A program made the position numbers and the translations under genes. A DNA stretch of 51,138 nucleotides from an uncultured Alphaproteobacteria bacterium (GTDB lineage Bacteria; Pseudomonadota; Alphaproteobacteria; UBA7985): positions 1-51,138 of the forward strand of contig CAJQLX010000041.1 in assembly GCA_905479265.1 (NCBI GenBank), written 5' to 3'. The notes under the pieces were generated by a model. The model was given only the letters and a program-made list of their open reading frames with translations. It was not told where the DNA came from and ran no database searches. Shown here piece after piece: positions 12,148-31,026 of this stretch (positions are counted from its first letter, which is position 1; the number at the start of each line of letters is the position of its first letter).

Positions 12148-15100
12148 CTAGAAGGAAATCAGGTCAGCCGATCCATCGTCTGCGAAACGCATGATGATGT
12201 CCGTGTTAAAGATATCGCTGGTGAAATGGATATAAGACGTGTCTCCGGTCTGATACTCACGCGCGTCCCAGCCGCACAGATCATAGGAAGACGTGCTGCT
12301 GCTCGTCACCGGGATATCGTTATCCAAACCAGTGGTGGACGTTGTGGGGAGACCTGAAACGGGGTCGATTGCACCGGTGAATATCGTACCGGTGCCATCA
12401 TCCACAATGGTCACGGTGCCCGTAGGATTGACGGTTAATTGGAAAGTTTCACCATTATCACGCTCGACGTCTTGTTCTTCCATGATCGTTGTTCGCACCG
12501 CCAACATACCAAATTCATTGAGTGAGGTGGTGTTCGGCACAAAATCGATCCACGCGCTATCGGGGTCCAAAGGATCGTAGTTGGCGTGGTCAAAAACTTT
12601 GAGGTCAAAGTTCTGGATCACAACTTCGTTGTTGGTGTCTTGGACGGTCAGGCTCGTCAGGACGAAATCGTTTGCCCCAGAAATGATGTTGATGGCGTAG
12701 TCAGAGGCTTCGTTAACAATCACATCGTTGATCGAAACCACGTCTGTATCAAAATCCAGATCAGTCCCTTCCGTCGATGGGGTGGGCGGGCTGGTCCCCG
12801 TGTCTGCTTGGCCGGTAAATTTCGTTCCGCCACCACTGTCGTTGATGGTTGCCTCGCCCGTCACTGAGCCGCCATCGGCTTTGGTCACCGTCAGTTGGAA
12901 CTTCTCGCCGTCGTCAACAAAACTATCCTGCTCCTCAGCAATCGATATCCGAACCAGCAAAGTGGCTGTTGCATCAATGGTGATGGGGTTGGTCGATGAA
13001 AAGACCTCCCACGTGGTGCCGTTGAAAACTTCCAATTCATTGTCTGACAGGTTGAGCGTGACGTTATTTCCGCTGCTGTCTCCATCGGTGAGCGTCAGGC
13101 CGCTGATGGTCGTGCCTTGAGCGCCCGAAATGGTGAACACGGCATAAGGCGAGGCTTCGTTGACGACGATGTCCGAAACGCTAAAGGCGCTGTCGTCATC
13201 CGGGACCGTGGTGGTATCTGCCACCGGTGGTGCCGTGTCGTTTTGGACCAAGATGCCCGTCCCGTCGTCGAGGATCTTGGCGAGCCCGGTTTCCGACAAT
13301 GCCAAGTCGGTATCGGTTACTGTCAGCTCGAAGTACTCATCGCCTTCGCTGCTGCTGTCATTCACCAAGCCCAGCCGTACGTAAAGGATGCCCGTGTTAT
13401 CGACGGTCACGCCGCTCGTATAGGGGGTCCAAGAACCGTTGAAATACTCAATGGTGTTGCTGTAGTCCTCGCTGCCATCGGTCGCGGTTGGCGTATCCGC
13501 GCCGATCGCATCGACAGAGCCCGCGCTACCCCCGCCATCGCTGACTGAAAGCGTCAAGGTGTTCCCGGGCAGCGCTGTAACGGTGAAAACCGCTCCGCCC
13601 GGAGAGCCCTCGTTCACGTCAATATCGTTTATGGTCAGCGTAACGTCGTTGTCGGGTGTGGTTCCCTCATCCAGCGTGGGGTTCCCGTCGCTGTCCGGTC
13701 CCGCATCCGCGTAGAGGTTACCCGTGCCATCGTCTGTGATAGTTCCAGCGCCCACCAGCAACTCGCCCGTGTCGAGCGTGGTAATCAGCCGAAACAGTTC
13801 ATTGTTGTCGAGCGGGGTATCCTGCTCCGGGATAATCGACGTGCGAACAAGCAACGTGCTTTCGTCTGGAACCGTATACCCAGCAGAAGGGAGGGTGGTC
13901 CAACTGCTCGTCGAAGAATCGTAAAACTCGGCGGTGCCCCCGCTGAGGCCCGAGGTGGACGTGCCGCCTGCGCCATCGCCATCGAGGAAGGCAAGGTCGG
14001 TCACTGTTTGCCCGGCACCCGAAGCATTGGTGATGGTAAAGACGGCCCAATCAGAGCCCTCATTGACCGTGATTGAGTCGACTGTTAGCCCTGCGGTGTT
14101 GCTGTCATTGCTATCATTGATCGTCGCCAAGCCTTCATCGGTTATCGCAGGATGGGCCGCGTAGGACGCCTGAAGTTTGAACGTTTCACCATCGTCAGCG
14201 ATGGCATCGTTCTCGATTTTCACCCGGACATAGAGCGTTTGGCTCGACGTAATGGCAGGAAGCGCGCTTTCGTCATAGTCGTTCCAAGTCCCGCTGGTCC
14301 CATCGATCTGCCAATTTAAATAACCCCCATCTGCATTCTTCCACTTTTCCCCAAAGTCGAAAGCGGCGGATGGATCGTCGGGATTGTAAGCCGTCGCCAA
14401 AGGCGTGTCGCCGTCGCTGTAGGCGAGGGTAATTTCGTTCGCGCTGTCCTCAGAACTGGTTATGGCAAAGACGGCACCGTCGCCACTGGCCGCCGCATCT
14501 TCGAAGACCGTCACGTCAGAAACGGATATCGAAGCATCCTGATCTCGGGTTACCGCGGGATCTTCTGACGGTGGCGGGCCGCCATCCGCATAAACGGCCG
14601 CGTATCCTGAATCTTCAATAATCCCGACGCCGGTTGCTGTGTAGCTGCTGTTGGCTGCATCGGTCACCGTAACCGTGTATTCTTCGTTTCCTTCGAACAC
14701 AGGGGTGGCTGTGTCGTTTATGATCGGCACCCTGAAAAACAGCTTGCCGTCCGCGTCGACGGCAACGGCGCTGCTGTAGGTATCCCAGGCGGCTCCGTTC
14801 CAATATTCAATGGCGGTGCCAAAGTCGGTGCCCTTGACCGCATTGTCTGAACTGACCCCCGAAGCAGAGGCAAGCTCAAGACTCACGCCGACAGAGGCAA
14901 AGGCGGTAAAAATGGCAAAAGGCGAAGCTTCGTTGACGGTGACGCTATCAACGAAAACCTCGTTTGCGCCCAAAACGACAAGCTCAGCGGACGTGTTGTC
15001 TGAGCTTGAGAGGCCCGTATCTGTGTCGATTATCGTTGCGGTGACGTCATAAATACCCGGGTCAAGGTCTTGGCCGTCCGGTATCGTCAAGCTCCAGGTG

Positions 15101-16218
15101 TTGTTGCCAACGTCCACGACGAGGGCTGTATCTGCCTCCGTGTACAGGACGCCATTGACCGTGACAGTGAGCTCTTCATTTTCCGCCCGATCAAGAACGA
15201 CAGTTCCCGTCAGTGTTGGCGTGGTATCTGTTGTGCCTTGGCTTTCAACCGTCACGTCGCCCTGCGGCTGCAGCGTTTGGACGTAGTTGAGATATTCGTT
15301 CAGTTTATTCAAAACGTCTTTGAGGTCTGCCGAGCCCCCGACATCGTTGCCGGGTACGGATACGCCATATTCTTCAGCGACGTGGGTCGCGTCAGCCCCG
15401 TACAAGACCAGCCCAACGTTGCTGATCCACGGGTAGTTCAGGCTCTCGTTATCAGTAACGTCTTCGCCGTAGGCCACCCATTCGATCGCCGAACCATCGA
15501 TGGTGCCGTTCTGATTGTATTGCTGAAACATGATGTCCGGGGATGGATCCGGGTTCAGCGTGAAGTTATCCGAAGGCAAAAAACCGAAGCTTTGAGACAC
15601 ACCACCCAGTTTGTCTTGCCAGCCAATATACCCGGGAATCTCAAAGGTTTGACCACTTGATTCAATGGTGAGTGTGCCGGGTACATCATTACCCTGCGCT
15701 TCACCAAAAGCGCTGCGGTTTTGGAACTGATCTGTGGTGGAGACTTGGGAAAAATAGGCCTTGTCAATATCCATGTCAGCGAAGGAATTGACGTCATTAT
15801 TCTTCTGGTTGTTCGTCCCTCGCTTGCCGATATAGCCAGCGTCAAAAGGAACGGTCAGAACGGGCAATAGATGATTGAGGCCTTCGACCGGAGCTGCTTG
15901 GTATCCATCCAGATCTTTGTCTGTCTTCGGGCAGTAACCAAAATCGAGGACATAAGTTCCGCCGAGGCTGGCAGGGCCAACGTATTTTGAGCTTGCAAAG
16001 ACCGGTTTGCCGACGGCGCGGGCAAAGGTCCGGACAAAATCACGTCCAACATCCCCCAACGCGACCCGGCAGCTGATTAATTCTACACAAGGCGCAGCCT
16101 CAACCAGTGACTGTAAGCGTGATACAAAATGGCGGTTGGCGAAGTGGGCTGCACTTATCTTTTCGCCGTTTAGCTGAAAAGTTCCAGGAGCCCCATGCCC
16201 AACAAATCTAAAGCTCAC
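12148..16218 (-). CDS. Giant Calx-beta-like repeat protein with clan CD-like N-terminus
   Basis: A 1356-residue acidic, repeat-rich protein. Residues 1-95 resemble the C-terminal part of DUF4347 or C80-like domains: FRFVGHGAPG with H8, then ELISCRVALG with C50, spaced as in caspase-clan (CD) His/Cys dyads, then ASLGGTYVLDFG. Residues about 100-325 are unassigned. An Ig-like domain follows (TTPTLTGTVVLDRAENEEL, about 330-415), then six Calx-beta-like repeats, each opening with a motif such as DIVVNEASPYAVFTI or SITVNEGSDWAVFTI and ending in DDG or NDS. No Sec signal, RTX repeats or membrane segment is seen. The start is GTG at 16218, directly after a TAA, and the domain appears to lack its first strands, so a 5' truncation or frameshift is possible. 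It lies 193 bp after the FecR gene. Probable surface or extracellular protein; function unknown. Confidence 0.8.
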   Translation of the reverse strand: MSFRFVGHGAPGTFQLNGEKISAAHFANRHFVSRLQSLVEAAPCVELISCRVALGDVGRDFVRTFARAVGKPVFASSKYVGPASLGGTYVLDFGYCPKTDKDLDGYQAAPVEGLNHLLPVLTVPFDAGYIGKRGTNNQKNNDVNSFADMDIDKAYFSQVSTTDQFQNRSAFGEAQGNDVPGTLTIESSGQTFEIPGYIGWQDKLGGVSQSFGFLPSDNFTLNPDPSPDIMFQQYNQNGTIDGSAIEWVAYGEDVTDNESLNYPWISNVGLVLYGADATHVAEEYGVSVPGNDVGGSADLKDVLNKLNEYLNYVQTLQPQGDVTVESQGTTDTTPTLTGTVVLDRAENEELTVTVNGVLYTEADTALVVDVGNNTWSLTIPDGQDLDPGIYDVTATIIDTDTGLSSSDNTSAELVVLGANEVFVDSVTVNEASPFAIFTAFASVGVSLELASASGVSSDNAVKGTDFGTAIEYWNGAAWDTYSSAVAVDADGKLFFRVPIINDTATPVFEGNEEYTVTVTDAANSSYTATGVGIIEDSGYAAVYADGGPPPSEDPAVTRDQDASISVSDVTVFEDAAASGDGAVFAITSSEDSANEITLAYSDGDTPLATAYNPDDPSAAFDFGEKWKNADGGYLNWQIDGTSGTWNDYDESALPAITSSQTLYVRVKIENDAIADDGETFKLQASYAAHPAITDEGLATINDSNDSNTAGLTVDSITVNEGSDWAVFTITNASGAGQTVTDLAFLDGDGAGGTSTSGLSGGTAEFYDSSTSSWTTLPSAGYTVPDESTLLVRTSIIPEQDTPLDNNELFRLITTLDTGELLVGAGTITDDGTGNLYADAGPDSDGNPTLDEGTTPDNDVTLTINDIDVNEGSPGGAVFTVTALPGNTLTLSVSDGGGSAGSVDAIGADTPTATDGSEDYSNTIEYFNGSWTPYTSGVTVDNTGILYVRLGLVNDSSSEGDEYFELTVTDTDLALSETGLAKILDDGTGILVQNDTAPPVADTTTVPDDDSAFSVSDIVVNEASPYAVFTISGAQGTTISGLTLTDGDSSGNNVTLNLSDNELEVFNGTTWEVFSSTNPITIDATATLLVRISIAEEQDSFVDDGEKFQLTVTKADGGSVTGEATINDSGGGTKFTGQADTGTSPPTPSTEGTDLDFDTDVVSINDVIVNEASDYAINIISGANDFVLTSLTVQDTNNEVVIQNFDLKVFDHANYDPLDPDSAWIDFVPNTTSLNEFGMLAVRTTIMEEQDVERDNGETFQLTVNPTGTVTIVDDGTGTIFTGAIDPVSGLPTTSTTGLDNDIPVTSSSTSSYDLCGWDAREYQTGDTSYIHFTSDIFNTDIIMRFADDGSADLISF

Positions 16219-16411: not shown

Positions 16412-18565
16412 CTATTGCTCGGTTGCTGTGCTGAGCTGCAGCGCGATTGGCCTGAGTTGAAAGTTTAAATTCGGGTAAGAACACAGGAATGATTGATCGC
16501 TGACCGGCCCCTCGCACCGTGGTCCGGTTTGAGCGGTGAGGATATCGAGCGCGACATTCAAATCGTGGGCTTTGTGTTCGAATATCTCCAGCGTGATGAC
16601 GCCGGAATAGAGGCCGTCATCACGGGCATCGCAGATGAACTCTACGACCTCGAATTGCGGTTGTATGTTGGTCGCCTCATTAATGGCGCCGGTATCGTCC
16701 AACTCAAACGCAGCTTGTCCGTCCAGCGAGACGGTCAACTGTCCGGGAACGACGTAAACGTTGGTGGTGTCGTCGATCGAGGAGACGACCACGGGACCGC
16801 ATCCGCCTCGGGCCGTCTCAAGCGCAGGAAAGTTAACGAGCATGCGGAACCCGCCATTTGCGCGCAGATCTACATTGGCAGCCATCACCGGTGAATTGGC
16901 CGCAAGTCCGATCCAGTCATCCGTTCCGGTCCCAATAAAGGACTGGGATGTCAGGCCGTAAACGGAGGCGTAGTAGGGGTAGGCGAAGTTAAATGTGATG
17001 CCAAAGCTGGTGTTGCTGCTGTTGGCACTGGGAATCACCTGTGACTGCAAGGTCAGCTGTTCGAAATCTTGAAGGCTGCTTGGATTGGAAAACACGGTGA
17101 AGCTTGCGCCGGGCGTGAGCGCCGTTCCTATGGTCTTTGCGGCTGCTGCGACGGGGCTAACACTGTCACCGTCTGCTGCCTCAAGGTCAGCATTTTCGTC
17201 GATCGTTTCCTCAATGACCTCGTCTTCTGTGGCACTGTCACCGGTCAGAGCCGGGTCGCTTTGGTCGGCTGCTTCTGTGCCGTCCACGCTGAGAGCGTTT
17301 GATTGTTGGGTGGTTTCCAAAACAACCTCGGGATCCAAAATCTCCACGGCTGTCTGTGCCTCTGGGATTTCTTCTGTCGCTTCTTCTGAAACCGCTTCAT
17401 TGGTGAGCGGAACATAGCTTTGCTCCACGTTGCCCTTCACGACTTCGAGCGTATCCAGCGCGGACCGCAGGGTGGCCAGCGTTGCACCTGATGACCGCAG
17501 CCCCTCTTCAATTTGATCCAGGGAGCCAAGCGCATCGTCTTTTTCGACGCCGAGCGAACCCAATTCTTCGACCAGTTCAGCAATTTGTTCGCTGCAATCA
17601 AGGCCCTTGGTGCAGCTGTCGATAATTTTTTGTTCGAACTGCTCGGTTTTGAAAGAGCTGACAAAGGTTGAATAGGTTTTAGGATCTTGAAACACCGCTT
17701 CAACCTGCGTGAAGCTCTCCAGCATTTGTCCGACTGAGGCCGCAGCCTGATCGCCGTCTTCGTCGCGGTTGATGCTCAGCAGTTCGCTGGTCAAATCAAC
17801 GTCTTCTCCCTGTGCATTGCGGGCGGTCAAGGTGAAGGTTTGGCTGGGGGGATCGGCGGTTTCTGTTGCGTCCTCGGCAACGGGATCCGTTGCACCATCG
17901 GCGCTGGGGTCTGAAGTCTCAGGTTCTGAGTCTTCTAGGGCCGCCAACGTGAAATCCACGGCGCCCAAGAATACGGCCAAGTGCATTTCGCCATCGGGCT
18001 CGATCAAGAACACCAGCTCTGTTCCTCTGAGCTGTGCGGTGCCGTTGGGGGATGAGATTGTGTAGGACGCCGGGCTCATGGTCCCCGAGGCAAATTTGAT
18101 CAGTCCGGACAGCAAATTAACCGACATCGAGCCCAGATTGGTCGCGGTGGTATAGTCAAAAACGTTGACCTCGGCTTCGCTGTTGCTGCCCAAAGACAGA
18201 AGTGTTCCGTCTTCGAACTCAATGACAGCCAAGCCACCGTCGTACGTCGAGATGATTTCGTTGGTAAGGACGGTGTCGCCCACGCGGGCCGTGTCATAGG
18301 CTGCGAAGTTATACAGGCGCTCAACGTCGCCTTGCACATCGATCAGGATGCCAACCTCCGTTTCCCCGGCTTCGACCAAGGTTTCACGGGTGATGACGGG
18401 GAACGTTGTTTCTGTGTTCAAAGACGAAGCGAGCAAAGCCACCAAGGGATCATCCGCATCAACCGGTTGGCTCAAGGCGCGGGTTGCTGGGAAAGTCACG
18501 ACAAGCGCCGTGAGCAGCCAACCAACGATAGGGCGCCACGTTCGCTGGCGTGGCACCGCGGTCAT
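16412..18565 (-). CDS. FecR-domain protein with C-terminal subunit-like beta domain
   Basis: A 717-residue exported protein. A signal peptide (about 1-32) precedes a FecR domain at about 73-205: GDTVLTNEIISTYDGGLAVI, FEDGTLLSLGSNSE and SSPNGTAQLRGTEL are the standard FecR motifs. Then come an acidic low-complexity stretch (210-242), a helical, probably coiled-coil segment (about 275-385, with C318 and C324), a second acidic stretch (390-470), and a beta-rich C-terminal domain (about 485-717). That last domain has C589 and C645 flanking GQLTVSLDGQAAFELDDTG, very like the two small secreted proteins at 21147 and 23538; C684 and C695 form a second possible pair. Its ATG overlaps the lipoprotein stop (ATGA), so translation is probably coupled. 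It could be an anchor or assembly factor; this is inference. Confidence 0.85.
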   Translation of the reverse strand: MTAVPRQRTWRPIVGWLLTALVVTFPATRALSQPVDADDPLVALLASSLNTETTFPVITRETLVEAGETEVGILIDVQGDVERLYNFAAYDTARVGDTVLTNEIISTYDGGLAVIEFEDGTLLSLGSNSEAEVNVFDYTTATNLGSMSVNLLSGLIKFASGTMSPASYTISSPNGTAQLRGTELVFLIEPDGEMHLAVFLGAVDFTLAALEDSEPETSDPSADGATDPVAEDATETADPPSQTFTLTARNAQGEDVDLTSELLSINRDEDGDQAAASVGQMLESFTQVEAVFQDPKTYSTFVSSFKTEQFEQKIIDSCTKGLDCSEQIAELVEELGSLGVEKDDALGSLDQIEEGLRSSGATLATLRSALDTLEVVKGNVEQSYVPLTNEAVSEEATEEIPEAQTAVEILDPEVVLETTQQSNALSVDGTEAADQSDPALTGDSATEDEVIEETIDENADLEAADGDSVSPVAAAAKTIGTALTPGASFTVFSNPSSLQDFEQLTLQSQVIPSANSSNTSFGITFNFAYPYYASVYGLTSQSFIGTGTDDWIGLAANSPVMAANVDLRANGGFRMLVNFPALETARGGCGPVVVSSIDDTTNVYVVPGQLTVSLDGQAAFELDDTGAINEATNIQPQFEVVEFICDARDDGLYSGVITLEIFEHKAHDLNVALDILTAQTGPRCEGPVSDQSFLCSYPNLNFQLRPIALQLSTATEQ

Positions 18566-18933
18566 ACCTTGTCGACCACGACAACCCCCGTGGAGATACC
18601 GGAGATGTAAACTTGGTCACCAAAGACGGCGATGGCGTGGCTGATGTTCCCATCAATTAAAACGCGCGCGCCACCATGTTCGATCAGCGCTTGCATGATT
18701 TCAGGCGCTTTCAGCGCGATTTCTTGAGCGTTGAAGCCGGATTTTAGCAAGGCTTCAACCATCGTGGGCGGGCTGACAAAGGCTTGCGAGCCGATGCGCA
18801 CCGGCACCACGTAAATGCCCGGCTGGTTGATTTCAGCGATTTCATCGCCGTTCTCTCCGCCGACGGCGCTGCAGCTTATCAAAGCAGGCGTGAAGACAAG
18901 GGCAAGCAAGCCAATAACGAGACGACGCATCAT
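18562..18933 (-). CDS. Small outer-membrane-type lipoprotein in the secretin operon
   Basis: A 123-residue lipoprotein: MMRRLVIGLLALVFTPALIS precedes the lipobox cysteine C21 (LISC). Residue +2 is Ser, which by the Lol rule favours outer-membrane sorting. The mature part holds NQPGIYVVPVRIGSQAFVSP, a short helical segment (residues about 58-90) and a C-terminal beta stretch. It belongs to no family I recognise. Its ATG overlaps the secretin stop and its TGA overlaps the FecR gene start (4 bases each), so the three proteins are made together. A pilotin-like or secretin-accessory role is plausible by position but unproven. Confidence 0.75.
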   Translation of the reverse strand: MMRRLVIGLLALVFTPALISCSAVGGENGDEIAEINQPGIYVVPVRIGSQAFVSPPTMVEALLKSGFNAQEIALKAPEIMQALIEHGGARVLIDGNISHAIAVFGDQVYISGISTGVVVVDKV

Positions 18934-20609
18934 AGGGCTCCCAGCCGTTTGAGTTCGGAAAGAATTTGCTGCTGATACGTCTGCGGATCCATGTGTGTGA
19001 GCACCCGGCCTTCGCTGATTTTCTTCAGCGGATCAACGAGTGTCGGCCTGATCAACACGCTGACTTGAAGCCGCTCATCATTGCTGATTTGGCGGGTAAA
19101 CAGGCTGCCCAGTCCGGGAAGACCCCGGAACGTATCGGCACGCTTGGTCGTGACCAGCCCTCCGACAATGGCCGTCCCGCCGTCTTCGACGACAACGGTT
19201 GTCTTGGCGCGGCGATCATACTTTTGCGCGTTGCCGCCCTCACTGGATGCATCATAGTCACTGACGCTCACGTCGATCTCCAGCTGAATATTGCCGTTAC
19301 CCAACAGTCTAGGGACGACTTGTAATCGCGTTCCGGTCGCAACTTCTTTGATGGAGGTGGCGGCGTTCTCGTCGCTCGTCGGTGTTGAATCGAGGCCCGA
19401 CATATACGTGGTGCTGAATTCAATTTCTGCGGTTTTGTTGTCCAGTGACATCACCGACGGCGCAGACATCACCATCGCATTCTGGTTGCCTTCAAGCATG
19501 GACAAACTCACGCTGAGGGCATTGGAAAATTCTTCGGTGGGCGAATACCCCAAATCGCCCGCCCAAGGCCGGGTGAGCAGGCCGGCCAAGCCGCCGGTAA
19601 AGCCAGCGCCAAAACGCGCGGTGGGCAGGCCCAGTTCACTGCCTTGGTCGATCGCATTCGCGTCGCGCAAAGCAACGACCTTGGCGTGGATCAAAATCTG
19701 CTTTGGCGTGCCGTCGATCGTCTCAACGGCGCTGAGGAGTGTCTGGATGACAGCGGGCTCGCCAACAAAGGTCATGACGGTTGAGTCGGGGGAGACAAAA
19801 ATGAACTCTCGCCATTCAGGGGGGAGCAGCTCGGCTAACTCCGATGGGGCAAACGTGCTGGGGCTGTAGGTTATGACCGATTGCCCTTGGAAAGCCTGCG
19901 CCATGGCCGATGATGTACCGTCGAGCTGTCGCACGTAGGATTGGATTTTCATGATGACGTCCGATGGTGCTCGAACGATCAGCTTGTTCTGTGAGACAGT
20001 AACAAAGCTCGACAAGCTCAACGGCAACGCATCTTTCACGTCCTCAGCCGCAATTGTGCTCGGGGTCAAAACGGCAGTTTGCAAGTCGACGGCATCCAGC
20101 TGGCGCAGCTGATTCAGGATGTTCTGAACCACCAGACGAGGGCCAACAACGGAGACCAGCCCGGCTTCATTCAGGGTGCGGGTGTATTCTCGCTGTTCTG
20201 ACGGTAGCAGGTTGACGATCTCGGATGGAGCGAACGACCGAGGCTGGAAGAGTTCACTCGCAATCGCTTCGCCGGACAAGACCGACATGTCTGCAGGCTC
20301 GTAAATAAGAATGAAATTGTCGATCATCTCAAACGTGGCGCCGCTGCCAGCCAAAACCAGTCTTAAAGCGTCCGTCACCTGCATGTTGCTGAACGTCACG
20401 TCTGTCGTCCCGATGACATCAGTACCAAACACGATGTTCATGTTCGCCTCGAAGGCAATGTCCTGCACCGCTTGGCGCAAGTCGGTTTGATAAAAGCTGT
20501 TCGAAACGAGCGGAGAATTCGTGCTGTAGACTTGCGTTTGAGCGCTTGCTTGACCGACGAAAAGGCCGCTCAAAACGAATAATAACGGGTAAATCCACAA
20601 CCGGGGCAT
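18930..20609 (-). CDS. Secretin (outer-membrane pore) with STN domain
   Basis: A 559-residue secretin-superfamily protein with a Sec signal peptide (cleavage near ASA-Q24). Order of domains: STN/N0 (about 37-104, LRQAVQDIAFEANMNIVFGT), three N1-like periplasmic modules (about 122-172, 178-230 and 245-299), then the secretin core (303-526). The core shows VEDGGTAIVGGLV, the lip motif GLPGLGSLF (496-504) and the terminal strand VSVLIRPTLV. The first and third N1-like modules share the phrase FAPSE..(N/E)LLP..(Q/W)RE. It should form a multimeric outer-membrane channel. None of the usual partners (GspE/PilB ATPase, GspF, GspC, pseudopilins, CpaB/CpaE) is nearby. It is the first gene of an ATGA-coupled operon with the lipoprotein and FecR gene. 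Confidence 0.9.
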   Translation of the reverse strand: MPRLWIYPLLFVLSGLFVGQASAQTQVYSTNSPLVSNSFYQTDLRQAVQDIAFEANMNIVFGTDVIGTTDVTFSNMQVTDALRLVLAGSGATFEMIDNFILIYEPADMSVLSGEAIASELFQPRSFAPSEIVNLLPSEQREYTRTLNEAGLVSVVGPRLVVQNILNQLRQLDAVDLQTAVLTPSTIAAEDVKDALPLSLSSFVTVSQNKLIVRAPSDVIMKIQSYVRQLDGTSSAMAQAFQGQSVITYSPSTFAPSELAELLPPEWREFIFVSPDSTVMTFVGEPAVIQTLLSAVETIDGTPKQILIHAKVVALRDANAIDQGSELGLPTARFGAGFTGGLAGLLTRPWAGDLGYSPTEEFSNALSVSLSMLEGNQNAMVMSAPSVMSLDNKTAEIEFSTTYMSGLDSTPTSDENAATSIKEVATGTRLQVVPRLLGNGNIQLEIDVSVSDYDASSEGGNAQKYDRRAKTTVVVEDGGTAIVGGLVTTKRADTFRGLPGLGSLFTRQISNDERLQVSVLIRPTLVDPLKKISEGRVLTHMDPQTYQQQILSELKRLGAL

Positions 20610-21146
20610 GTATAGATAACCTACGTCTAGAAGTTAGAATAGCTTCCAGCTGCTACATGTATTATCCGTCAAACAAGCGAATACTTATTATGCGACTGCA
20701 TTCTGTGGATAAATACAATCAATATAGAAATGAAAATATATGACTCGATCTCATTGAAAACATTTAGGATTTTGTTTTGCGCGATTGCACGATTTAATAC
20801 ACGTTTGAGTGTTGGAATTTACATATAAAGTGAATAAACGGATAAAGTATCTGTTTTTTTGCGTCTCAGTTTGGGGTCAATTTTCCTTGTGCAACGCAAT
20901 ATAAGGCCGAAAAATTTTTTAGATATTTTTATATCAAAAAGATACGAGAAAATTTCAAAAAGATGCATTAAGTTCTATCGTTTTATTGTTTGTCACCACC
21001 CAACATGTTCCATTTTTCTGTGAGCTGAGTTTTCAGCAATCCCAAATCAGTTTTGGGAGCGCGATTTGAGTTTTGAAGCGCGCGCATTTAACGAGTCGGG
21101 GCTGCGGTTAGCGACTGCTCAGACGTGAATTCGGAGAGAGAGAATA
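20610..21146. promoter_or_regulatory. AT-rich divergent control region of the envelope locus
   Basis: A 537-bp AT-rich gap between the divergent secretin operon and the subunit-like gene. It contains a 10-bp direct repeat TCAAAAAGAT at 20934-20943 and 20955-20964, whose 21-bp period places both copies on one DNA face, typical of tandem regulator sites. Near the plus-strand gene lie two stem-loops: GCTGA/TCAGC (21024-21037) and CCCAAA/TTTGGG (21041-21057). They should fall in its 5' leader if transcription begins upstream. No ORF with an RBS was found. Confidence 0.55.
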
Positions 21147-21806
21147 ATGAAACAGCAAAAGCTGACGAGAGCCTTAAGCATCGCGTGTACCATCGCAGGA
21201 TTGTCATTCAGTGCATCAGCGTTTGGTCAAACAACAGACTCAGCGAATTACGAAGCAACGGCGCCTGCTTACGCCGTCGTGCTGGATAATGGTTTGGCAG
21301 ACAGCTCTGCAACGGTCACATACAACAACACCGCACTTGGTGACGAGAGCCGGATCACTGACATGATTGCCGTTGTTGAAAATCAAGACGTGAAGGTAAG
21401 GGCCAATAGTACTTACAGCCTTGCGCTGGTCATCCCTACTTTTCCCTATGACACCAACTCGTGCCAGCCTGTGTTCTTGCAGAACGGTGTCGATACGTTC
21501 GGTGCCGTTGGAGAAATTGAGATTACAGTCGATGGTACAACAGTGACATTCAATGACCTGGGCTTTGCTGTCTCAGCGGGTGATAATGTGGCTGCCGCTA
21601 TTGTCTGTGACAATATCGGTGGTTCCGCCACGATCACCTTCACCAGCACACCGCCGACCGGCACGACCGTTGACACCTATACCTTCGATGTCGGGTTCTT
21701 ACCTGATGGTGCTCGGGATGATTCAGGCCAAAACTATGGAGCCGATCAGGAGCCACCGGCAGGCGTCTATGATTTGCCACTTTCGGCAACACTGAGCACC
21801 AGCTAA
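21147..21806 (+). CDS. Secreted beta-rich subunit-like protein (candidate major subunit)
   Basis: A 219-residue secreted protein. A Sec signal peptide (about 1-27, ending SASAFG) is followed by a beta-rich acidic chain. C106 and C154 flank GEIEITVDGTTVTFNDLGF, a pattern shared with the protein at 23538 and with the FecR-protein C-terminus. The last residues PPAGVYDLPLSATLSTS resemble the final strand of spore-coat-U/CS1-type pilins (P-A-G-x-Y then alternating residues). GGAGAG precedes the ATG. A strong intrinsic terminator follows the stop codon, so this gene is probably transcribed more than its downstream neighbours, as expected for a major structural subunit. Family unrecognised; a structural role is inferred. 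Confidence 0.75.
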   Translation: MKQQKLTRALSIACTIAGLSFSASAFGQTTDSANYEATAPAYAVVLDNGLADSSATVTYNNTALGDESRITDMIAVVENQDVKVRANSTYSLALVIPTFPYDTNSCQPVFLQNGVDTFGAVGEIEITVDGTTVTFNDLGFAVSAGDNVAAAIVCDNIGGSATITFTSTPPTGTTVDTYTFDVGFLPDGARDDSGQNYGADQEPPAGVYDLPLSATLSTS

Positions 21807-21862
21807 GCGACGCCATCTTTTGTTCATCTGACGGTTTACATGCGGTCAGATACAATCGCACC

Positions 21863-21900
21863 AAAGGGGTGGCACGGCTTGAGTGCTGCCCCTTTTTTTT
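21863..21900 (+). terminator. Intrinsic terminator after the subunit-like gene
   Basis: AAGGGGTGGCAC pairs with GTGCTGCCCCTT across a 7-base loop (two G-T wobbles) and is followed by an unbroken T-run to 21900. It lies between the subunit-like gene and the chaperone-like gene, so partial read-through would set subunit excess. Confidence 0.88.
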
Positions 21901-21963
21901 AGCCCTGCATTATCCGGTGTCCGGTATCCGGGACCGTCGAAGGGTCTATTGGGGATACAATTG

Positions 21964-23541
21964 ATGATTACGATTAAGCGATTCATCGCTGGTTTTATCG
22001 CTGCTGGAGCCTTGGCACCCGTTCTCTTTGCAACAGTGGCGAATGGCCAGAGCTACGCGATTTTGCCTCAACGCGTCGCGATCGAAGCGCGGACCGGTGC
22101 GAGTTTCAGTTTACCCATCAAAGCTCTGTCTTTCAGCGACAGTCCGATTTTGATCGAGATGGAGCATCTTCCCAACGCGTGGACCTATGACGATAGCCGT
22201 GGACCCAGCCCGGTCAACGCGCGCGCTGACAGTGTATTGCAAGCGCGGGATGGCAACCAGTTGCCTTGGTTTGATTACCCGTCACAGGTGGAAATTCGGC
22301 CAAATGCAGAAGATCAAGTGATCCCCGTCACAGTCAACCTGCCTGATAACGTCTCCGGCACCTACGAAGGCGAGTTTATCGTTCAAGAAGTTGGGTTGGA
22401 CCAGCTTTTGACCATTGGTTATCGGACAACGTATCAAATCATCATCACCAATCGGCCGTCTTATCCGCTGATCGATGTCCAAGAGACGGCATTTGAATGG
22501 AAGCCGGAACAGCTTTCGCTGGATATCGGCATCAAGAACACCGGAAACGCCGCGCTGGTGCTTGGTGGTGAGTTTCAGATCTTCAGCGAGGCTGGGGGCC
22601 GCCGCCGGGCTGTTCTCAAAGACACGCTGGAGCAAGTCACCCTATCTGCTGGTGACATAGAGCGGATCGAGCAGCCCTTGCCGGCCTCATTTCCCAGTGG
22701 AAACTATGGGATCCTTGTCTCGCCAAAGATTGACGAACAACGTCTTCGTCCAATGAGCAGCTCGACCACGTTGCTCAATGCCTATGAGTTTGGTGGGACG
22801 ATCGGTAACTACGGCATCGCCAGCGTCCCGAACTTGGTGCGGGCTTCAATCGCTCCAGCAGGACGCCGAAACTTCCCCCTTCTCGTCCGGAATGCATCCG
22901 AGCAGTCGAAAGCTGTATCGTTGAAAAGCATCGAGTGGCTCTCAGAAGCGCCGGAAGCGCTGACGATGACCCTGACGCCAGAGGCGATGACGCTCCAAGC
23001 GGGTCAGGAAAGAAGCCTGCGTCTGCTGGTGATCTCTGGTCCGGACTACGAGCCCAGCCCGACGCCACATTATGCCAGCATCTACCTGAACGTCTTTGAT
23101 GAGGGGGAAGACGTTGCCAGTGGCGAGCTGATGGTCCTGCTTGAGATTTCGGACGGAGACTTTAACCCGGTCAGGGATCTCGCTTTCTCCAATCCAAGGA
23201 TTGTTGCCGACGCCACCAATCAAGAGCGCTCCGTCTTGCAGTATGATGTTGAAAACAACGGTGCGCTGGCTGAGACACCCTTTTTCTTCCTGAGCCTTGG
23301 CGGGCCGGGCGAAATCGGCTCGGTGATCGAAAACGAGCTGGTGGCGCTTAAACACTTCATTGGGCCGGGTCAGTCGAAAACCGAGGAGGTCAGCCTGGCT
23401 GTACCCCTGACGCTTTTTCAAGCCGAGCTGCAGAACGATCGATCGTCCCAACTGGATGTCATATTCGAAGCGGTCCAATCCGGGGAACGGCAACGGCCCG
23501 TGCGCGCCAACGTAAGAGTTGAAGGATTAGGGGCGGAATGA
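21964..23541 (+). CDS. Periplasmic multi-Ig-like protein, candidate chaperone
   Basis: A 525-residue exported protein. The signal peptide ITIKRFIAGFIAAGALAPVL ends near ANG-Q29. The mature part looks like about four consecutive beta-sandwich modules: the first (about 30-170, opening YAILPQRVAIEARTGASFSL) resembles the start of FimC-type chaperones and DUF916-like Ig domains; later ones contain DIGIKNTGNAALVLGGEF and FPLLVRNASEQSKAV, which are N-x-G/N-A type Ig edge motifs. There are no cysteines and no membrane anchor. I start at the ATG at 21964 because GGGGA lies just upstream; the frame runs back to 21883 without support. Its TGA overlaps the next gene start (ATGA). Chaperone or scaffold for the small beta-rich proteins is an inference from context. 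Confidence 0.75.
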   Translation: MITIKRFIAGFIAAGALAPVLFATVANGQSYAILPQRVAIEARTGASFSLPIKALSFSDSPILIEMEHLPNAWTYDDSRGPSPVNARADSVLQARDGNQLPWFDYPSQVEIRPNAEDQVIPVTVNLPDNVSGTYEGEFIVQEVGLDQLLTIGYRTTYQIIITNRPSYPLIDVQETAFEWKPEQLSLDIGIKNTGNAALVLGGEFQIFSEAGGRRRAVLKDTLEQVTLSAGDIERIEQPLPASFPSGNYGILVSPKIDEQRLRPMSSSTTLLNAYEFGGTIGNYGIASVPNLVRASIAPAGRRNFPLLVRNASEQSKAVSLKSIEWLSEAPEALTMTLTPEAMTLQAGQERSLRLLVISGPDYEPSPTPHYASIYLNVFDEGEDVASGELMVLLEISDGDFNPVRDLAFSNPRIVADATNQERSVLQYDVENNGALAETPFFFLSLGGPGEIGSVIENELVALKHFIGPGQSKTEEVSLAVPLTLFQAELQNDRSSQLDVIFEAVQSGERQRPVRANVRVEGLGAE

Positions 23542-24209
23542 TGATGGCATTCCGTGCGATTTTGTTTGCTCTGGCGATCTTTCTAACCGGGACGCAGGTC
23601 GCGTGGGGCGACCACAACCCCAACCACGGTGGCGGCAGCAGCGGCAGCGGCGACGAAGTGGCTGCCGATAGCGCAGTCCTATCGTCGTCATCCATCGTTA
23701 TCGACCTCGGCCAAGTCGATTTGCAGGGCTCCACGGCTTACGGCGGCAGTGATGATCGTGTCGTGGTGTCTAACTCAATTTTCATCGAGGGCAGCCGGAA
23801 GTATGATTTCGAGCTTGTTTATCCATCGCTCTGCGGTTCGCCATCTAGCGACGATCGGCTGATTTTTTCGCCAACCTCGGGCACTCAAGTGAATAATTTT
23901 GTGGTGCTTGCGGGGCTTCAGGTCGTCTTGGATGGTGCCTCAACGCTCTTTAATGTTGACCCAGACACGGGGGCAACGAGCGGAAACCCAAACCAGTTCA
24001 AATGCGTCTCAGGCAACCGCGAAATAAAGATCCGGAACCAAAACATCTCTGGCAGTTCGGATACCATTGAACTTTACGTAACATTCCGCGTTGATGGCGG
24101 GGTTTTATCGACCAGCGCTGGGTTGGGCGAAGTTGGCGAAAACGGCGAAATACCCGCCGGCACCTACCAAGCCGTTATCGACACGACTGTGACCTTCAAA
24201 GGGTCGTAA
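23538..24209 (+). CDS. Secreted beta-rich subunit-like protein (candidate minor subunit)
   Basis: A 223-residue secreted protein with a signal peptide (FRAILFALAIFLTGTQVAWG) followed by a His/Gly/Ser-rich linker (residues 25-40). The body resembles the protein at 21147: RKYDFELVYPSLCG matches STYSLALVIPTFP then the Cys; LQVVLDGASTLFN matches IEITVDGTTVTFN; C99 and C156 are the shared pair; and the end EIPAGTYQAVIDTTVTF matches EPPAGVYDLPLSATL. The similarity is by eye and moderate. It is translationally coupled (ATGA) to the chaperone-like gene. Probably a minor or tip-like partner of the first subunit. Confidence 0.75.
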   Translation: MMMAFRAILFALAIFLTGTQVAWGDHNPNHGGGSSGSGDEVAADSAVLSSSSIVIDLGQVDLQGSTAYGGSDDRVVVSNSIFIEGSRKYDFELVYPSLCGSPSSDDRLIFSPTSGTQVNNFVVLAGLQVVLDGASTLFNVDPDTGATSGNPNQFKCVSGNREIKIRNQNISGSSDTIELYVTFRVDGGVLSTSAGLGEVGENGEIPAGTYQAVIDTTVTFKGS

Positions 24210-24294: not shown

Positions 24295-25227
24295 CTAAAG
24301 CGCGAGCTGTTGCTTCGCCCAATCCAACATCTCTGGCGTGATGGATTCCACGTCCGCGGTTTGGCCCGAGTTAACCAGAAAACTTACAAGAGCAAGGCTG
24401 AGGTTATCATCACCGGTGATGGCTTCGAGGCCGTCGACGTCTTCCTGCAGCACCGCCAACTCCGTCTGGGCCTGGGATTGGACAGACTGCACACGATCAG
24501 CCTCCGCGCTGATCTCGCCCACGCGCTCGGATGCAGCTAGGGCATCCAGCTCGATTTGAGCCCTTTGTGCGTCGAGCAAGGCCAGTTCTGCATTCAGGGC
24601 GTCGATTTGATCTTGCTGCGTTGCTGGATCAAGCGCTTCGAGGTCAGCTTGCAGCGCTGTCATCTCCTCGCTCACACCAAGCAGCTCAGCGGTAAAGGCA
24701 AGTTGGTCTTGCTCTGCTTCAGCGAGCGCTGCCGCCAGCGCGCTAACGTCATTGGCCAACAGTGCCAGCGCCTGAGAGGCGAGTTCGCGGTTGATGACGG
24801 TTTCGTCGAGCAGCATTTTGTTCGCCAGGAACGTCTGGATCTCCCCAAGTTTCTTATCGGAAGAATTCAAGAGTGCTTCAGGATTACGCTTTAGTGAATT
24901 GAGAGATTTCAGCTGCGCGTTCAGGTTCTTCTCTTTGGTAGACGCAGAATTAATGTTGCTGCTGCCAGAAGATTTCGACGATGACGCGGTATTGCTGTTC
25001 GACTTTTTCGAGCTTGACGCATTGGATTCGCTCTTAGAGCCAGAAGAGCTTGACGTTGAGGCTTTGTTTTTGCCTTTCCCGCTGCTTTGACTGGAATTTG
25101 ATTTGTTATCTTTGCTTTTGCCCTGTGCCGTTGCGTCATCGGATATTGAAACCGAAAGGAATAAAGTCAGAGCCCCAGCAGCTAGCGCAAAATTTCGAAT
25201 ACTTTGTTTGCCAAATGAAAAAATCAT
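24295..25227 (-). CDS. Exported Ser/Lys/Asn-rich coiled-coil protein
   Basis: A 310-residue exported protein of no recognised family. A signal peptide (about 1-34, ending DATA before QGK) leads into a low-complexity tract (36-98) almost entirely Ser, Lys, Asn and Gly, then a long helical region (about 145-270) rich in Ala, Leu, Glu and Gln with heptad-like spacing, predicted coiled coil. The start at 25227 is chosen because GGAGA lies 5 bases upstream; the frame runs back to 25290. It converges on the subunit-like genes, so membership in the envelope system is possible but not shown. Functions such as a peptidoglycan or matrix tether fit the composition but are speculative. Confidence 0.7.
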   Translation of the reverse strand: MIFSFGKQSIRNFALAAGALTLFLSVSISDDATAQGKSKDNKSNSSQSSGKGKNKASTSSSSGSKSESNASSSKKSNSNTASSSKSSGSSNINSASTKEKNLNAQLKSLNSLKRNPEALLNSSDKKLGEIQTFLANKMLLDETVINRELASQALALLANDVSALAAALAEAEQDQLAFTAELLGVSEEMTALQADLEALDPATQQDQIDALNAELALLDAQRAQIELDALAASERVGEISAEADRVQSVQSQAQTELAVLQEDVDGLEAITGDDNLSLALVSFLVNSGQTADVESITPEMLDWAKQQLAL

Positions 25228-25238
25228 CTTGTTCTCCA

Positions 25239-25290
25239 TCAATTTGATAAAACAATGATCTTCAATTTGATAATACGCAAACCTTATCAA
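25239..25290 (-). promoter_or_regulatory. Repeated TTGATAA sites in the coiled-coil gene leader
   Basis: The 12-mer TCAATTTGATAA occurs at 25239-25250 and again at 25262-25273 (23-bp period), and the reverse complement TTATCAA occurs at 25284-25290. This cluster directly precedes the start codon and could be a repressor or autoregulatory site. Confidence 0.4.
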
Positions 25291-27280: not shown

Positions 27281-28465
27281 CTAAGCGCTGATATCATAGA
27301 GCCAGTTTTGGGCGTATCCGGCAAAGCGGTTGGTGGGCAGGCCAAACCACTTGGCGAGGATGAAATCATAGAGCGACCGATAATCGAGGGTGAAACGTAG
27401 GTCACCGTCATCCAGGTTTTCGAGGTCTGGATCATCACCAAACAACCCGCCCCTGATCGAACCACCCAACAAGAAATGGGGTGCAGCCGTCCCGTGATCG
27501 GTGCCGCTGGATCGGTTTTCTGTCGCCCGCCGGCCGAACTCGCTGTAGGTCATGATGAGGGTATCGTCCCAGTGACCCGATCGCTTGAGCGCCAGCCGCA
27601 AGTCGGACATGGCACCGGCCAAACTGGACAGCAGTTGCCCGTGCTCGCCCTGCTGATATTCGTGTGTATCAAAGCCGGAAATCTTGAGCTTCAGCACGGG
27701 TGCTTCAACGTCTGCAGCGATTAATCGGGCGGCGAGTGCGGCTTGGCTGGACAAGGCGCCACGGCCAAATTGCAGTCCGCTCGTGGGGCTGTGTGAGGCA
27801 TCGACCTTCGCGGAAATACGAGACATGGATGCGTCCAGCGTGCTGGCGCGATCCATCAGCAACGCCAAAGCCGGGTTCGCTTGTGCGCCTGCGCCCGGGG
27901 TTGTCATTTGGTAGTCTTTGAGCGTTTTCAGCTCTCGCAGCGATGTCAGCGAGATCCACATTCCTGACGAAGAGGCGAAGACGCCCATGCCGCCGTCCAG
28001 ACTGATCCCATGCGCGTCGAGGGGCTGTTCAAGGCGTTCTATGTCTTCGGTCAGCCAGCCGTTTCGACCCGCCTTTTTGCCATCGCCGCCCGTCTCCCAT
28101 AGCGCGATGGACTTGAAATGTGAGCGGTTCTGGTCGGGGTAGCCCAAACCCTGGACAACCGCCATATCGCCCGCGTTCCATGCGCTCATCAAGCTGTTCA
28201 TGCGACTGTTCAGGGCCATGTCACCGCCAAGCGACAAAACCTCGGACGCATTGAGCGCAACGCTTGGCCGAATGGCGCGGTATCGGTCATTCTTGATCGG
28301 TACAATGGTGTTCAAGCCATCGTTCGCGCCGGAGAGTTCAACCAAGATCAGACGCCGGCCTGAGCGCTGTGCGGCTCTGGCGAGTTGAAGGGGGGCCAGC
28401 GGGATGGACAGGCCAGCGGCAAGAAGGCTGAGGAGTTGTCGACGTTCCAAGGGTTTTGTCCTCAC
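27281..28465 (-). CDS. DUF1501 (alkaline-phosphatase-superfamily-like) exported protein
   Basis: A 394-residue DUF1501 protein with a Tat-like signal (LERRQLLSLLAAGLSIPLAP). Diagnostic segments are RLILVELSGANDGLNTIVP, YPDQNRSHFKSIALWETGG, SGFDTHEYQQGEHGQLLSSL and EFGRRATENRSSGTDHGTAA, which place the metal-binding-like Asp/His residues of this family. Biochemical function is not established for the family. It starts at GTG 28465, whose GTGA overlaps the stop of the DUF1800 gene; the two families are a conserved pair, suggesting joint function at the cell envelope. Confidence 0.92.
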   Translation of the reverse strand: MRTKPLERRQLLSLLAAGLSIPLAPLQLARAAQRSGRRLILVELSGANDGLNTIVPIKNDRYRAIRPSVALNASEVLSLGGDMALNSRMNSLMSAWNAGDMAVVQGLGYPDQNRSHFKSIALWETGGDGKKAGRNGWLTEDIERLEQPLDAHGISLDGGMGVFASSSGMWISLTSLRELKTLKDYQMTTPGAGAQANPALALLMDRASTLDASMSRISAKVDASHSPTSGLQFGRGALSSQAALAARLIAADVEAPVLKLKISGFDTHEYQQGEHGQLLSSLAGAMSDLRLALKRSGHWDDTLIMTYSEFGRRATENRSSGTDHGTAAPHFLLGGSIRGGLFGDDPDLENLDDGDLRFTLDYRSLYDFILAKWFGLPTNRFAGYAQNWLYDISA

Positions 28466-31026
28466 TTCACTTGAAAGGCGGGTTCACGGACCAAGTCAGC
28501 AAAGCTGAAACCTTGGCTTGTCCCCGCCATGTTTGCCCCGGCTAGGAGGCTTTCTACGGGATGGTCCAGCACCGCCGCTGCGGGTTGGTCCGTCCAATTC
28601 AAATCATCGCGCAACAGGCCGAGAACGATGGGTTCAGCACTATTCATTGCGGCCATCATCATGCTCATCATCGATGCATTTTCTGAATCAGCAGGTTCGA
28701 TAATGACGTCACGGTCGGGCTGGGTCCGTGCGTACCGACTGTTTTTGAGCCGTGCGGAGACGGGTTTCAGCAGCGGCTGCCAAGAGGCCAATATCACCCT
28801 GCCGTCACGGCGTTGAAATTGACGCCCAGACTGCATTTCTGTCAGCAACGTCGGTATGGCAAACCAAAGTGCGCTGTAGAAGCGCTTCTGCTGGGGCGTT
28901 AGTTGGCGGAATTGACGTTCTGCGCTGCTGTCTGATCGGGAGGTGAGCGGGATCTCGATATTTCTAAACCCGGAGCCCGTCATCCGAAAGGAGGCATTGG
29001 GCCAGCGATCATTCCAACATGCTGGTTCGCAATCACGCTGGTCGAGCCTGAGCGCCAGGACCATTCGGCCATTTATCTTTTTAGCAGCAAGCTCCAGCCG
29101 CATGGCATCGATTGCTATGTCTTCAAACCGCACCTGATCCAACCCTAATTTGAACCAGCTGTGGTTACGCTCGCTGCGGAGTTCGCGGCCACCATCGAAA
29201 TGCACATAACCGACAGACAGGCCACTCGCTGTCTCATCCTCATCGGCGGCAACGGGGGTAATCAGCGCGCTGGACTTACTCAACGTGAGACGCCCGGCGC
29301 AGTAGAAACTGCCCGGTGGATTGTCACCATTTGATTGTCGGCATCCGGGGCTTTGTAGCCCGTCGTTGGCGAAGAAAATGCGGTCTTGGACCTGTACCCA
29401 ATCAATGAAAACGTTTCGGTCCCCGCCCGAACTGCCGCCGACACCGCAGCAGTGATCGTTGGGAAACGCGACCATGAAGGAGCGCGGGGCAGGGCCGCCG
29501 CTGGGCTGTTCGAATTCAGCAACTTGCCAGTTGAGACCAACGCCATTATCCGCTCGCCCGTAGCGCGCCGTGTCTAGCCCGCCTTGGGCGTTGAACAGGG
29601 GGGATTTCCAAATCAGCTCTGTGCCAGCTTCATCTGCAAAGGCTCTGATCGACAGCATGGGCGGTCCTTCGAAATCTTCAGCGGCGTATCGAAGCCGGAT
29701 TGTGTCGTCCGAGCTGAGCCCTTCCTCTAGCGCCATTGCGGCAACAGGCGTTTGTTCTGGCATCTGGGCGTTGAACATGTAGGCGGGCGCATCAGCGTAC
29801 TCGCCCAAAACTTCATTGCGTTTGACGATCCGTGCTGGCGTCAGCCAATCAGCTCCACCCGGCCAGCCCGCAACATTCGGCGCTTCAAACAGGTTTTGTC
29901 CCAGACTGGCGAGAGTCGTGGGTAATTGTTGCCAATCCGCTGGCAGTTTCCCACTGGTTCGGATGCTGCCAATGACCAAATCAACAGGCGATTTGATGAT
30001 GGTTCCGCGGTTTTCCTCTGCCCAAAATGCAGCCGATGACAGGGTGGATCGGAGCAGCGTGCGTATCTCGTAATCACTGTCGCGAAAGGCTTTTGCGATC
30101 TGCGCGATCTCTTGTTCGTCACTGTTGAATTCCGAGATATAAGCGCGCCAGAATTTTTCAGTGAGAAAGGTGGCGCTGCGGGTTTGTTGCAACAGAAGAT
30201 CGACAATGTCGTCCCCGTCAAAGTTCCCGCGCTGCCCGAACACTGTCTTTACGCCGCCATCGTGGGACCAGTTGTTAAAGTGGAAATCAAGCCGGCGCAG
30301 GTTGCTGTAATCATAGCCGGTCAGGGCGCGAGCCACTTCTTTAACGTCCTGTTCGGTGTAGTTGCCCTCGCCCAGGACGAACAACTCCAGCAGCTCCCGG
30401 GCAAGGTTCTCGTTGGGGCTTTCCTTGCGGTTGCTGCTGTTATCCAGATAGTTCAGCATCGCCGCATCTCGGATGACGGCGTGGAGCAAATCTCGGAAGC
30501 TGCCGTGTCCTTGCTCTCGCAGCATCAAGTGCTGGGCAATCAAGGCGTCAACCTCTTCGTTCAAACCGGAATAGGCGGTTACAAAGTGATTGTGCCACAG
30601 CAGCAGCAAGCGCTCGCCCGCTGGATTGGGTGAGGAAATCAGCTCGCTGATCCACCAACGGCGAAACTCATCCATTTCCTGATTGCGCATGATGCGAAAG
30701 GCTTGTCGGTCAGCCTCATCCCGGTCGCTGATCGAGTGGTATTGAGCATAGCGTCGATCAAGGATGTCGGGTGGGTCGATGAAAGGGGATGTCACATCAA
30801 GCTGCTCCAGCATCTTCTCGATGGCTTGAGCGCGGTCTAACTCAAGCAGCGCTGCAATCTCAACGGGATGCGCACCAATCCCGGCGCGCTCCAACAGGTG
30901 GCGGGCATCGGCTGCTGTCATGGGCTGGTTCAGGTGCGGGAGATCGCGGATTTGATCCGATCGCGCTGCGTTTGCTCCGCTAACAAGTACGGCAAACAAA
31001 AGGGATAATAGCCTTAGAACCCGCAT
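28462..31026 (-). CDS. DUF1800 protein with inserted CBM-like module
   Basis: An 854-residue exported protein. After the signal peptide (RVLRLLSLLFAVLVSGANA) comes the DUF1800 core (about residues 35-400): ARHLLERAGIGAHPVEIAAL, LLLWHNHFVTAYSG, ESPNENLARELLELFVLGEG and EAPNVAGWPGGADWLTP are family hallmarks. A roughly 250-residue segment then intervenes. It contains FMVAFPNDHCCGVGG and GDRNVFIDWVQVQD, the ND...DRN(V/L)xxD pattern of calcium-dependent xylan-binding CBM36/60-type modules. A helical tail (QLTPQQKRFYSALWFAIPTL) follows. Start: ATG at 31026, with GGAGG 5 bases upstream; the longer frame to 31203 is unsupported. It overlaps the DUF1501 gene by GTGA. Confidence 0.88.
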   Translation of the reverse strand: MRVLRLLSLLFAVLVSGANAARSDQIRDLPHLNQPMTAADARHLLERAGIGAHPVEIAALLELDRAQAIEKMLEQLDVTSPFIDPPDILDRRYAQYHSISDRDEADRQAFRIMRNQEMDEFRRWWISELISSPNPAGERLLLLWHNHFVTAYSGLNEEVDALIAQHLMLREQGHGSFRDLLHAVIRDAAMLNYLDNSSNRKESPNENLARELLELFVLGEGNYTEQDVKEVARALTGYDYSNLRRLDFHFNNWSHDGGVKTVFGQRGNFDGDDIVDLLLQQTRSATFLTEKFWRAYISEFNSDEQEIAQIAKAFRDSDYEIRTLLRSTLSSAAFWAEENRGTIIKSPVDLVIGSIRTSGKLPADWQQLPTTLASLGQNLFEAPNVAGWPGGADWLTPARIVKRNEVLGEYADAPAYMFNAQMPEQTPVAAMALEEGLSSDDTIRLRYAAEDFEGPPMLSIRAFADEAGTELIWKSPLFNAQGGLDTARYGRADNGVGLNWQVAEFEQPSGGPAPRSFMVAFPNDHCCGVGGSSGGDRNVFIDWVQVQDRIFFANDGLQSPGCRQSNGDNPPGSFYCAGRLTLSKSSALITPVAADEDETASGLSVGYVHFDGGRELRSERNHSWFKLGLDQVRFEDIAIDAMRLELAAKKINGRMVLALRLDQRDCEPACWNDRWPNASFRMTGSGFRNIEIPLTSRSDSSAERQFRQLTPQQKRFYSALWFAIPTLLTEMQSGRQFQRRDGRVILASWQPLLKPVSARLKNSRYARTQPDRDVIIEPADSENASMMSMMMAAMNSAEPIVLGLLRDDLNWTDQPAAAVLDHPVESLLAGANMAGTSQGFSFADLVREPAFQVK

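What the first reader, a model, noticed from the sequence alone, without database searches (positions are those of the whole stretch)
16412..24209. Candidate undescribed secretin-plus-chaperone surface-subunit system
A secretin (18930-20609), a lipoprotein and a FecR-domain protein form an ATGA-coupled operon divergent from two related small secreted beta-rich proteins and an Ig-like chaperone-type protein. Secretins normally work with a type II, III or IV machine, and chaperoned beta-subunits normally use an usher; neither set of partners is in the 25 kb around. The combination suggests a pathway in which a secretin replaces the usher as outer-membrane exit. Co-localisation, overlaps and domain calls are seen in sequence; the pathway is inference.
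Basis: partly seen in the sequence, partly recalled or inferred. Interest (0 to 1): 0.82.

Follow-up and report, generated by a model that had tools for sequence, protein, structure and literature searches.

The report
Orphan secretin beside surface-subunit-like genes
This alphaproteobacterial genome carries one very divergent outer-membrane secretin gene but none of the inner-membrane engines tested for that secretins are known to work with, and it sits beside genes for secreted beta-rich proteins whose domain also ends the secretin operon's FecR protein, so it may be the exit pore of an undescribed surface-assembly route, though no second genome with the set was found.

Summary
New evidence: the two small proteins are paralogues and the FecR protein's C-terminus appears to be a third copy of their domain (leave-one-out profiles; similar Cys pair), tying the two operons together. 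A strong terminator hairpin follows the first small gene, as behind a major subunit. Genome-wide (2.9 Mb, 96% complete) this is the only secretin; there is no GspE/PilB/CpaF-type ATPase, T2SSF platform, usher, FHIPEP or Zot. A tree places the secretin outside the T2SS, PilMNOPQ and Tad groups on a very long branch. So the secretin is an orphan. Not supported: the 'chaperone' call (no family or PDB match; structure models failed) and conservation: no relative of the 525-aa protein or the subunits in 385 class and 398 phylum genomes, and no close secretin relative in a scan of 84,980 species. The secretin-as-usher pathway is possible but unproven. Partly supported; interest moderate because the orphan state is unusual, lowered because it is a singleton.

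The parts
18930..20609 (-). Secretin, 559 aa: signal peptide, STN/N0 (57-103), three N1-type repeats (about 118-175, 182-233, 248-300), secretin pore domain (372-526), 33-residue C-terminal tail (possible pilotin-binding S domain, inferred)
   Evidence: Pfam PF00263 92 bits, STN, Secretin_N; N1/N2/N3 mutual similarity, 0 of 500 shuffles as high; only secretin in the genome
18562..18933 (-). Small lipoprotein, 123 aa, lipobox LISC; candidate pilotin or anchor (inferred)
   Evidence: sequence; ATGA overlap with secretin; no family match
16412..18565 (-). FecR-domain secreted protein, 717 aa: signal peptide, FecR domain 105-203, acidic linker, coiled-coil-like 287-374, acidic linker, C-terminal subunit-like domain (about 520-717)
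   Evidence: PF04773; C-terminal domain related to betaA/betaB; ATGA overlap with lipoprotein
21147..21806 (+). betaA: secreted beta-rich protein, 219 aa, candidate major subunit
   Evidence: Shine-Dalgarno-like GGAGAGAGAG before the ATG and terminator behind the gene; paralogue of betaB
21863..21895 (+). Terminator-like hairpin with T run between betaA and the next gene; would lower read-through after betaA
   Evidence: 13-pair stem followed by T run, -22.2 kcal/mol
21964..23541 (+). 525-aa secreted protein without Cys, Ig-like in layout (inferred only), candidate periplasmic holder or scaffold; no family match
   Evidence: no relative in 385 + 398 genomes
23538..24209 (+). betaB: secreted beta-rich protein, 223 aa, candidate minor subunit
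   Evidence: ATGA overlap with the preceding gene; paralogue of betaA
20610..21146 (.). AT-rich (36% GC) region between the two divergent operons, presumed to hold both promoters
   Evidence: GC 0.363 against 0.556 for the window; no ORF of 90 aa or more

Best explanation
One functional unit made of two divergent operons that puts beta-rich, probably disulphide-containing subunits on the cell surface through a secretin with no ATPase engine. The parts enter the periplasm by Sec (signal peptides seen). The lipoprotein brings the secretin to, or holds it in, the outer membrane (inferred from its place and lipobox). The FecR-domain protein sits under the secretin, perhaps docking on its N0/STN domain through the FecR module, as FecR-type sigma regulators bind the STN-fold signalling domain of TonB transducers (inferred). 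Its C-terminal subunit-like domain would be the base that receives betaA and betaB. The 525-aa protein would hold subunits in the periplasm until export. betaA, followed by a strong terminator, would be the abundant subunit and betaB the minor one. Shown: gene content, overlaps, domain homologies, genome-wide lack of the engines tested. Inferred: export of these subunits through this pore, the polymer, the chaperone role.
For: Only one secretin in the genome; T2SSE below cut-off, the two weak hits being ClpB and an ABC ATPase; no T2SSF (16), Usher (27), FHIPEP (53) or Zot (54). The subunit domain occurs three times, twice in one operon and once at the end of the FecR protein in the other: a betaA+betaB profile finds FecR first among other ORFs of 7,780 (E 0.003, next 0.21), betaB+FecR finds betaA (0.004, next 1.6), betaA+FecR finds betaB (0.19, next 0.99); each has a Cys pair 48-57 residues apart. 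Overlapping stop/start codons. Terminator after betaA. FecR/PupR-type periplasmic domains bind STN-fold domains in sigma regulation (PMC7186176).
Against: No other genome with the set was found. The 525-aa protein matches no chaperone family and is acidic (pI 4.5), unlike typical PapD-type chaperones (own knowledge). The FecR protein has no recognised STN subdomain, which PupR also needs for binding (PMC7186176). No energy source or gate-opening mechanism is evident. The betaA model has mean pLDDT 40 only. The FecR/subunit homology is statistically modest.
Confidence: 0.36

Rival explanations
1. The secretin is a relic or a re-used lone channel, and the beta proteins and the 525-aa protein are a separate surface or periplasmic module that only happens to lie next to it.
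For: Secretins without filament genes in the fetched flanks exist elsewhere in the class (L039, L040), the window secretin weakly joins those two in the tree, and no co-occurrence in other genomes was found.
Against: The FecR protein, ATGA-coupled in the secretin operon, carries a domain like the divergent subunits; reading frames are intact and codon use is normal, so it is not decaying.
Confidence: 0.27
2. It is a divergent T2SS or type IV filament machine whose ATPase, platform and pilins are in the missing 4% of the genome or too divergent for the profiles.
For: The domain layout N0-N1-N2-N3 is that of GspD (own knowledge); TIGR02517 and TIGR02515 match, though far below cut-off; the assembly has 61 contigs and is 96% complete.
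Against: Neither T2SSE nor T2SSF is found, while these searches ring in 14 and 13 of 14 control genomes; none of 5 same-genus genomes shows a secretin, though four of the five are 63-82% complete; the secretin falls outside the typed groups.
Confidence: 0.14
3. The secretin, lipoprotein and FecR protein serve the giant repeat protein encoded next on the same strand (12148-16218), as exit or retention site of a large adhesin, and betaA/betaB are its partners.
For: Same strand, 193 bp downstream of the FecR gene; the FecR stretch shows a weak match to the LapA retention module (E 0.014).
Against: The DUF4347 domain starts at profile position 51 with an in-frame stop just upstream, so the giant gene may be damaged or mis-started; giant adhesins of this type normally use a type I system (own knowledge).
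Confidence: 0.12
4. A sensing rather than export device: the STN domain of the secretin and the FecR domain form a surface-signalling pair.
For: STN-fold and FecR-type domains interact in TonB-transducer signalling (PMC7186176).
Against: The FecR protein has a signal peptide, no later transmembrane-strength segment and no anti-sigma domain match; no sigma-factor gene was recognised by eye among the window ORFs.
Confidence: 0.05

Closest known systems
Type II secretion secretin GspD / type IV pilus secretin PilQ (type IV filament superfamily)
   Same: Secretin pore domain, STN/N0 and N1-type repeats; neighbouring lipoprotein as for pilotins
   Different: No assembly ATPase and no inner-membrane platform found in the genome; far below the GspD and PilQ cut-offs; outside their groups in the tree; FecR protein and beta subunits beside it instead of pseudopilins
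Chaperone-usher pathway
   Same: Secreted beta-rich, Cys-containing subunits; a larger secreted protein beside them; terminator behind the first subunit gene
   Different: No usher in the genome; no chaperone or pilin family match
Filamentous phage pIV
   Same: PHROG 1012 (protein IV of M13) matches residues 38-526 (108 bits), so the general architecture is shared
   Different: No Zot/pI ATPase in the genome and no phage genes recognised around
FecR/PupR sigma regulators
   Same: FecR domain PF04773
   Different: Signal peptide instead of anti-sigma domain and transmembrane helix; fused to a subunit-like domain

Membership tests
Secretin family (PF00263) | Secretin homology domain over curated cut-off | tested here: met
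   92.3 bits against a cut-off of 27.5
Type II secretion / type IV filament machine | T2SSE-family assembly ATPase in the genome | tested here: not met
   best 20.3 bits under the 24.9 cut-off; hits are ClpB and an ABC ATPase
Type II secretion / type IV filament machine | T2SSF inner-membrane platform | tested here: not met
   no match at E 0.01
Type II secretion / type IV filament machine | Major (pseudo)pilin and prepilin peptidase | not tested
Type II secretion / type IV filament machine | Secretin nested in a typed clade | tested here: inconclusive
   outside T2SS, PilMNOPQ and Tad groups, but on a branch of 2.81 with weak support
Type III secretion | FHIPEP/SctV export gate | tested here: not met
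   no match
Filamentous phage | Zot/pI ATPase | tested here: not met
   no match
Chaperone-usher pathway | Usher PF00577 | tested here: not met
   no match in the genome
Chaperone-usher pathway | PapD-type chaperone domain in the 525-aa protein | tested here: inconclusive
   no PapD match in Pfam and no chaperone in PDB at E up to 10, but a sequence-level test on a single sequence has low power
Chaperone-usher pathway | Donor-strand complementation between chaperone and subunit | not testable with these tools
   models have mean pLDDT 29 and 40
FecR sigma regulator | Anti-sigma domain plus transmembrane helix before the FecR domain | tested here: not met
   only FecR recognised; one N-terminal signal-peptide-like segment and no later segment of transmembrane strength

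The most novel reading that the evidence does not exclude
An engine-less secretin pathway: a secretin, with a lipoprotein and a FecR-subunit fusion as its base, exports and anchors a surface polymer of beta subunits without any cytoplasmic ATPase, so that the secretin does the work of an usher.
Probability: 0.22. Interest if true: 0.88.

Novelty: new variant of a known kind. Interest (0 to 1): 0.56.

Why it matters
The well-studied secretins work with a cytoplasmic ATPase (type II, III, type IV filaments, filamentous phage; own knowledge). A genome that keeps an intact, native-looking secretin while none of these engines could be found makes the question 'can a secretin act without an ATPase?' directly testable with three to six genes. 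If the subunits go through it, it would be a route for surface polymers outside the known numbered systems.

Tried and rejected
Close-relative scans of the secretin (genome and viral collections) and of the 525-aa protein, FecR and betaB (viral) gave nothing. A profile-guided scan of 84,980 species returned 80 loci with other secretins and none with a relative of the 525-aa, beta, FecR or lipoprotein genes; those whose partners could be typed were T2SS or PilMNOPQ sets. FecR matches on rhizobial and Paracoccus plasmids cover the FecR module alone; in the one annotated region viewed it lies beside a cyclase and a TPR protein. Weak beta-domain hits in two genomes (E 0.02 and 0.04 per genome, in 398 genomes) are at chance level and have no related neighbours. 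A tandem repeat inside the 525-aa protein was looked for and not detectable. AlphaFold models were too poor for fold searches, so none was run. T2SS/T4P membership of the system was considered and rejected for lack of engine genes. Papers in the held library: no description of a lone secretin with FecR or such subunits found.

Full report
What is in the sequence. The ORFs are at the stated coordinates. Minus strand: secretin 20609-18930 (559 aa), lipoprotein 18933-18562 (123 aa), FecR protein 18565-16412 (717 aa), joined by two ATGA overlaps. Plus strand, divergent: betaA 21147-21806, the 525-aa protein 21964-23541 and betaB 23538-24209, the last two also joined by ATGA. The ORF listed from GTG 21883 begins inside a terminator-like hairpin (21863-21895, 13 pairs, then a T run; -22.2 kcal/mol), so ATG 21964 is the likelier start. 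The 537-bp gap between the operons is 36% GC. Third-position GC of the cluster is like that of its neighbours, betaA being somewhat lower, so there is no clear sign of recent import or decay.

The secretin. Pfam finds the secretin domain (92 bits), STN/N0 and a Secretin_N domain. Three N1-type repeats are alike (N1/N3 score 95 against a shuffled mean of 22), giving N0-N1-N2-N3-pore, the GspD layout, in 559 residues. NCBIfam models for PilQ, GspD and SctC match at 70-97 bits, all far below their cut-offs of 238-351. In a tree of 47 secretins typed by their neighbours, T2SS, PilMNOPQ and Tad secretins largely form their own groups, and the window secretin lies outside them on an end branch of 2.81, weakly (SH-aLRT 76) beside two orphan secretins of another genome of the class; that join may be long-branch attraction.

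No engine found in the genome. The window is contig C41 of a 2.89-Mb genome in 61 contigs, 96% complete. It has one secretin. The type II/IV ATPase family gives two sub-threshold hits, which are ClpB and an ABC transporter ATPase by their sequence. The platform protein T2SSF, usher (27), type III gate FHIPEP (53) and phage ATPase Zot (54) are not found. A published generic definition of a type IV filament machine needs ATPase, platform and major pilin (PMC6668835); two of the three are missing, the pilin was not tested. Five same-genus genomes show no secretin by protein search, although four of the five are only 63-82% complete; the same search finds a secretin in 151 of 385 genomes of the class.

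A shared domain ties the operons. betaA and betaB are paralogues (score 81, shuffled mean 37, 0 of 500). betaA and the FecR C-terminus score 63 against 36 (1 of 500), betaB and the FecR C-terminus 47 against 35 (20 of 500). In a leave-one-out test against 7,780 ORFs each two-member profile ranks the left-out third member first among the rest: FecR E 0.003 (next 0.21), betaA E 0.004 (next 1.6), betaB E 0.19 (next 0.99). Each has a pair of Cys 48-57 residues apart (betaA 106/154, betaB 99/156, FecR 589/645); in a MAFFT alignment they fall in the same regions but not in the same columns, so a conserved disulphide is suggested, not shown. This is the best evidence that the secretin operon and the subunit operon are one unit: the FecR protein, coupled to the secretin operon, ends in a subunit-like domain.

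What does not hold. The 525-aa protein has no match to a chaperone, usher or pilin family in Pfam (to E 10), NCBIfam, PHROGs or PDB sequences; it is acidic (pI 4.5). Its Ig-like nature is inferred from residue pattern only. AlphaFold runs with one and three sequences gave mean pLDDT 29 and 40, too poor to use. No relative of this protein or of the subunit domain was found in 385 class and 398 phylum genomes. The scan of 84,980 species genomes gave no close secretin relative and, with a profile, 80 other secretins without any of the partner genes. These scans need short near-exact motifs and would miss distant relatives.

Mechanism. The most likely single account is an export and anchoring route for a surface structure: Sec-exported subunits, a secretin placed by its lipoprotein, a FecR-subunit fusion as base below the pore, and a periplasmic holder. 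FecR-type periplasmic domains bind STN-fold domains in sigma regulation (PMC7186176), so a FecR/N0 contact is plausible, though PupR needs an STN subdomain of its own that is not recognised here. Shown are gene content, homologies and the absence of the engines tested; the direction of transport, the polymer and the chaperone role are inferred.

Novelty and verdict. The pore protein is of a known kind; the setting is not one I know or could find in the held papers. Observation confirmed and strengthened; interpretation partly supported. The orphan state is real and unusual; the claim of a system rests on one genome.

Noticed in passing
12148-16218 (-): Giant repeat protein whose DUF4347 domain starts at profile position 51 right at a GTG with an in-frame stop three codons upstream; the first third of the domain is missing, so the gene may be truncated at its 5' end.
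   Followed up: partly
31806-35348 (-): 1180-aa cadherin-repeat surface protein containing long identical internal repeats (for example 'NTLSIAEGATSPTLQASVTDPEGDSITWSIVGG' twice).
   Followed up: no
27281-31203 (-): DUF1501 and DUF1800 genes overlapping by four bases, a usual pair of these unknown families; the DUF1800 protein carries a long extra C-terminal part.
   Followed up: partly
24295-25290 (-): Ser/Lys-rich then coiled-coil-like secreted protein of no known family, convergent with betaB.
   Followed up: no
L039:8412-10070 and L040:8972-10708: Two related orphan-looking secretins in one other genome of the class (G348), with no filament or secretion genes recognised in the flanks fetched (short on one side in L039).
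   Followed up: partly
whole genome G000: The genome seems to lack the T2SSE ATPase family, T2SSF, FHIPEP (so also the flagellar and type III gate) and ushers.
   Followed up: yes
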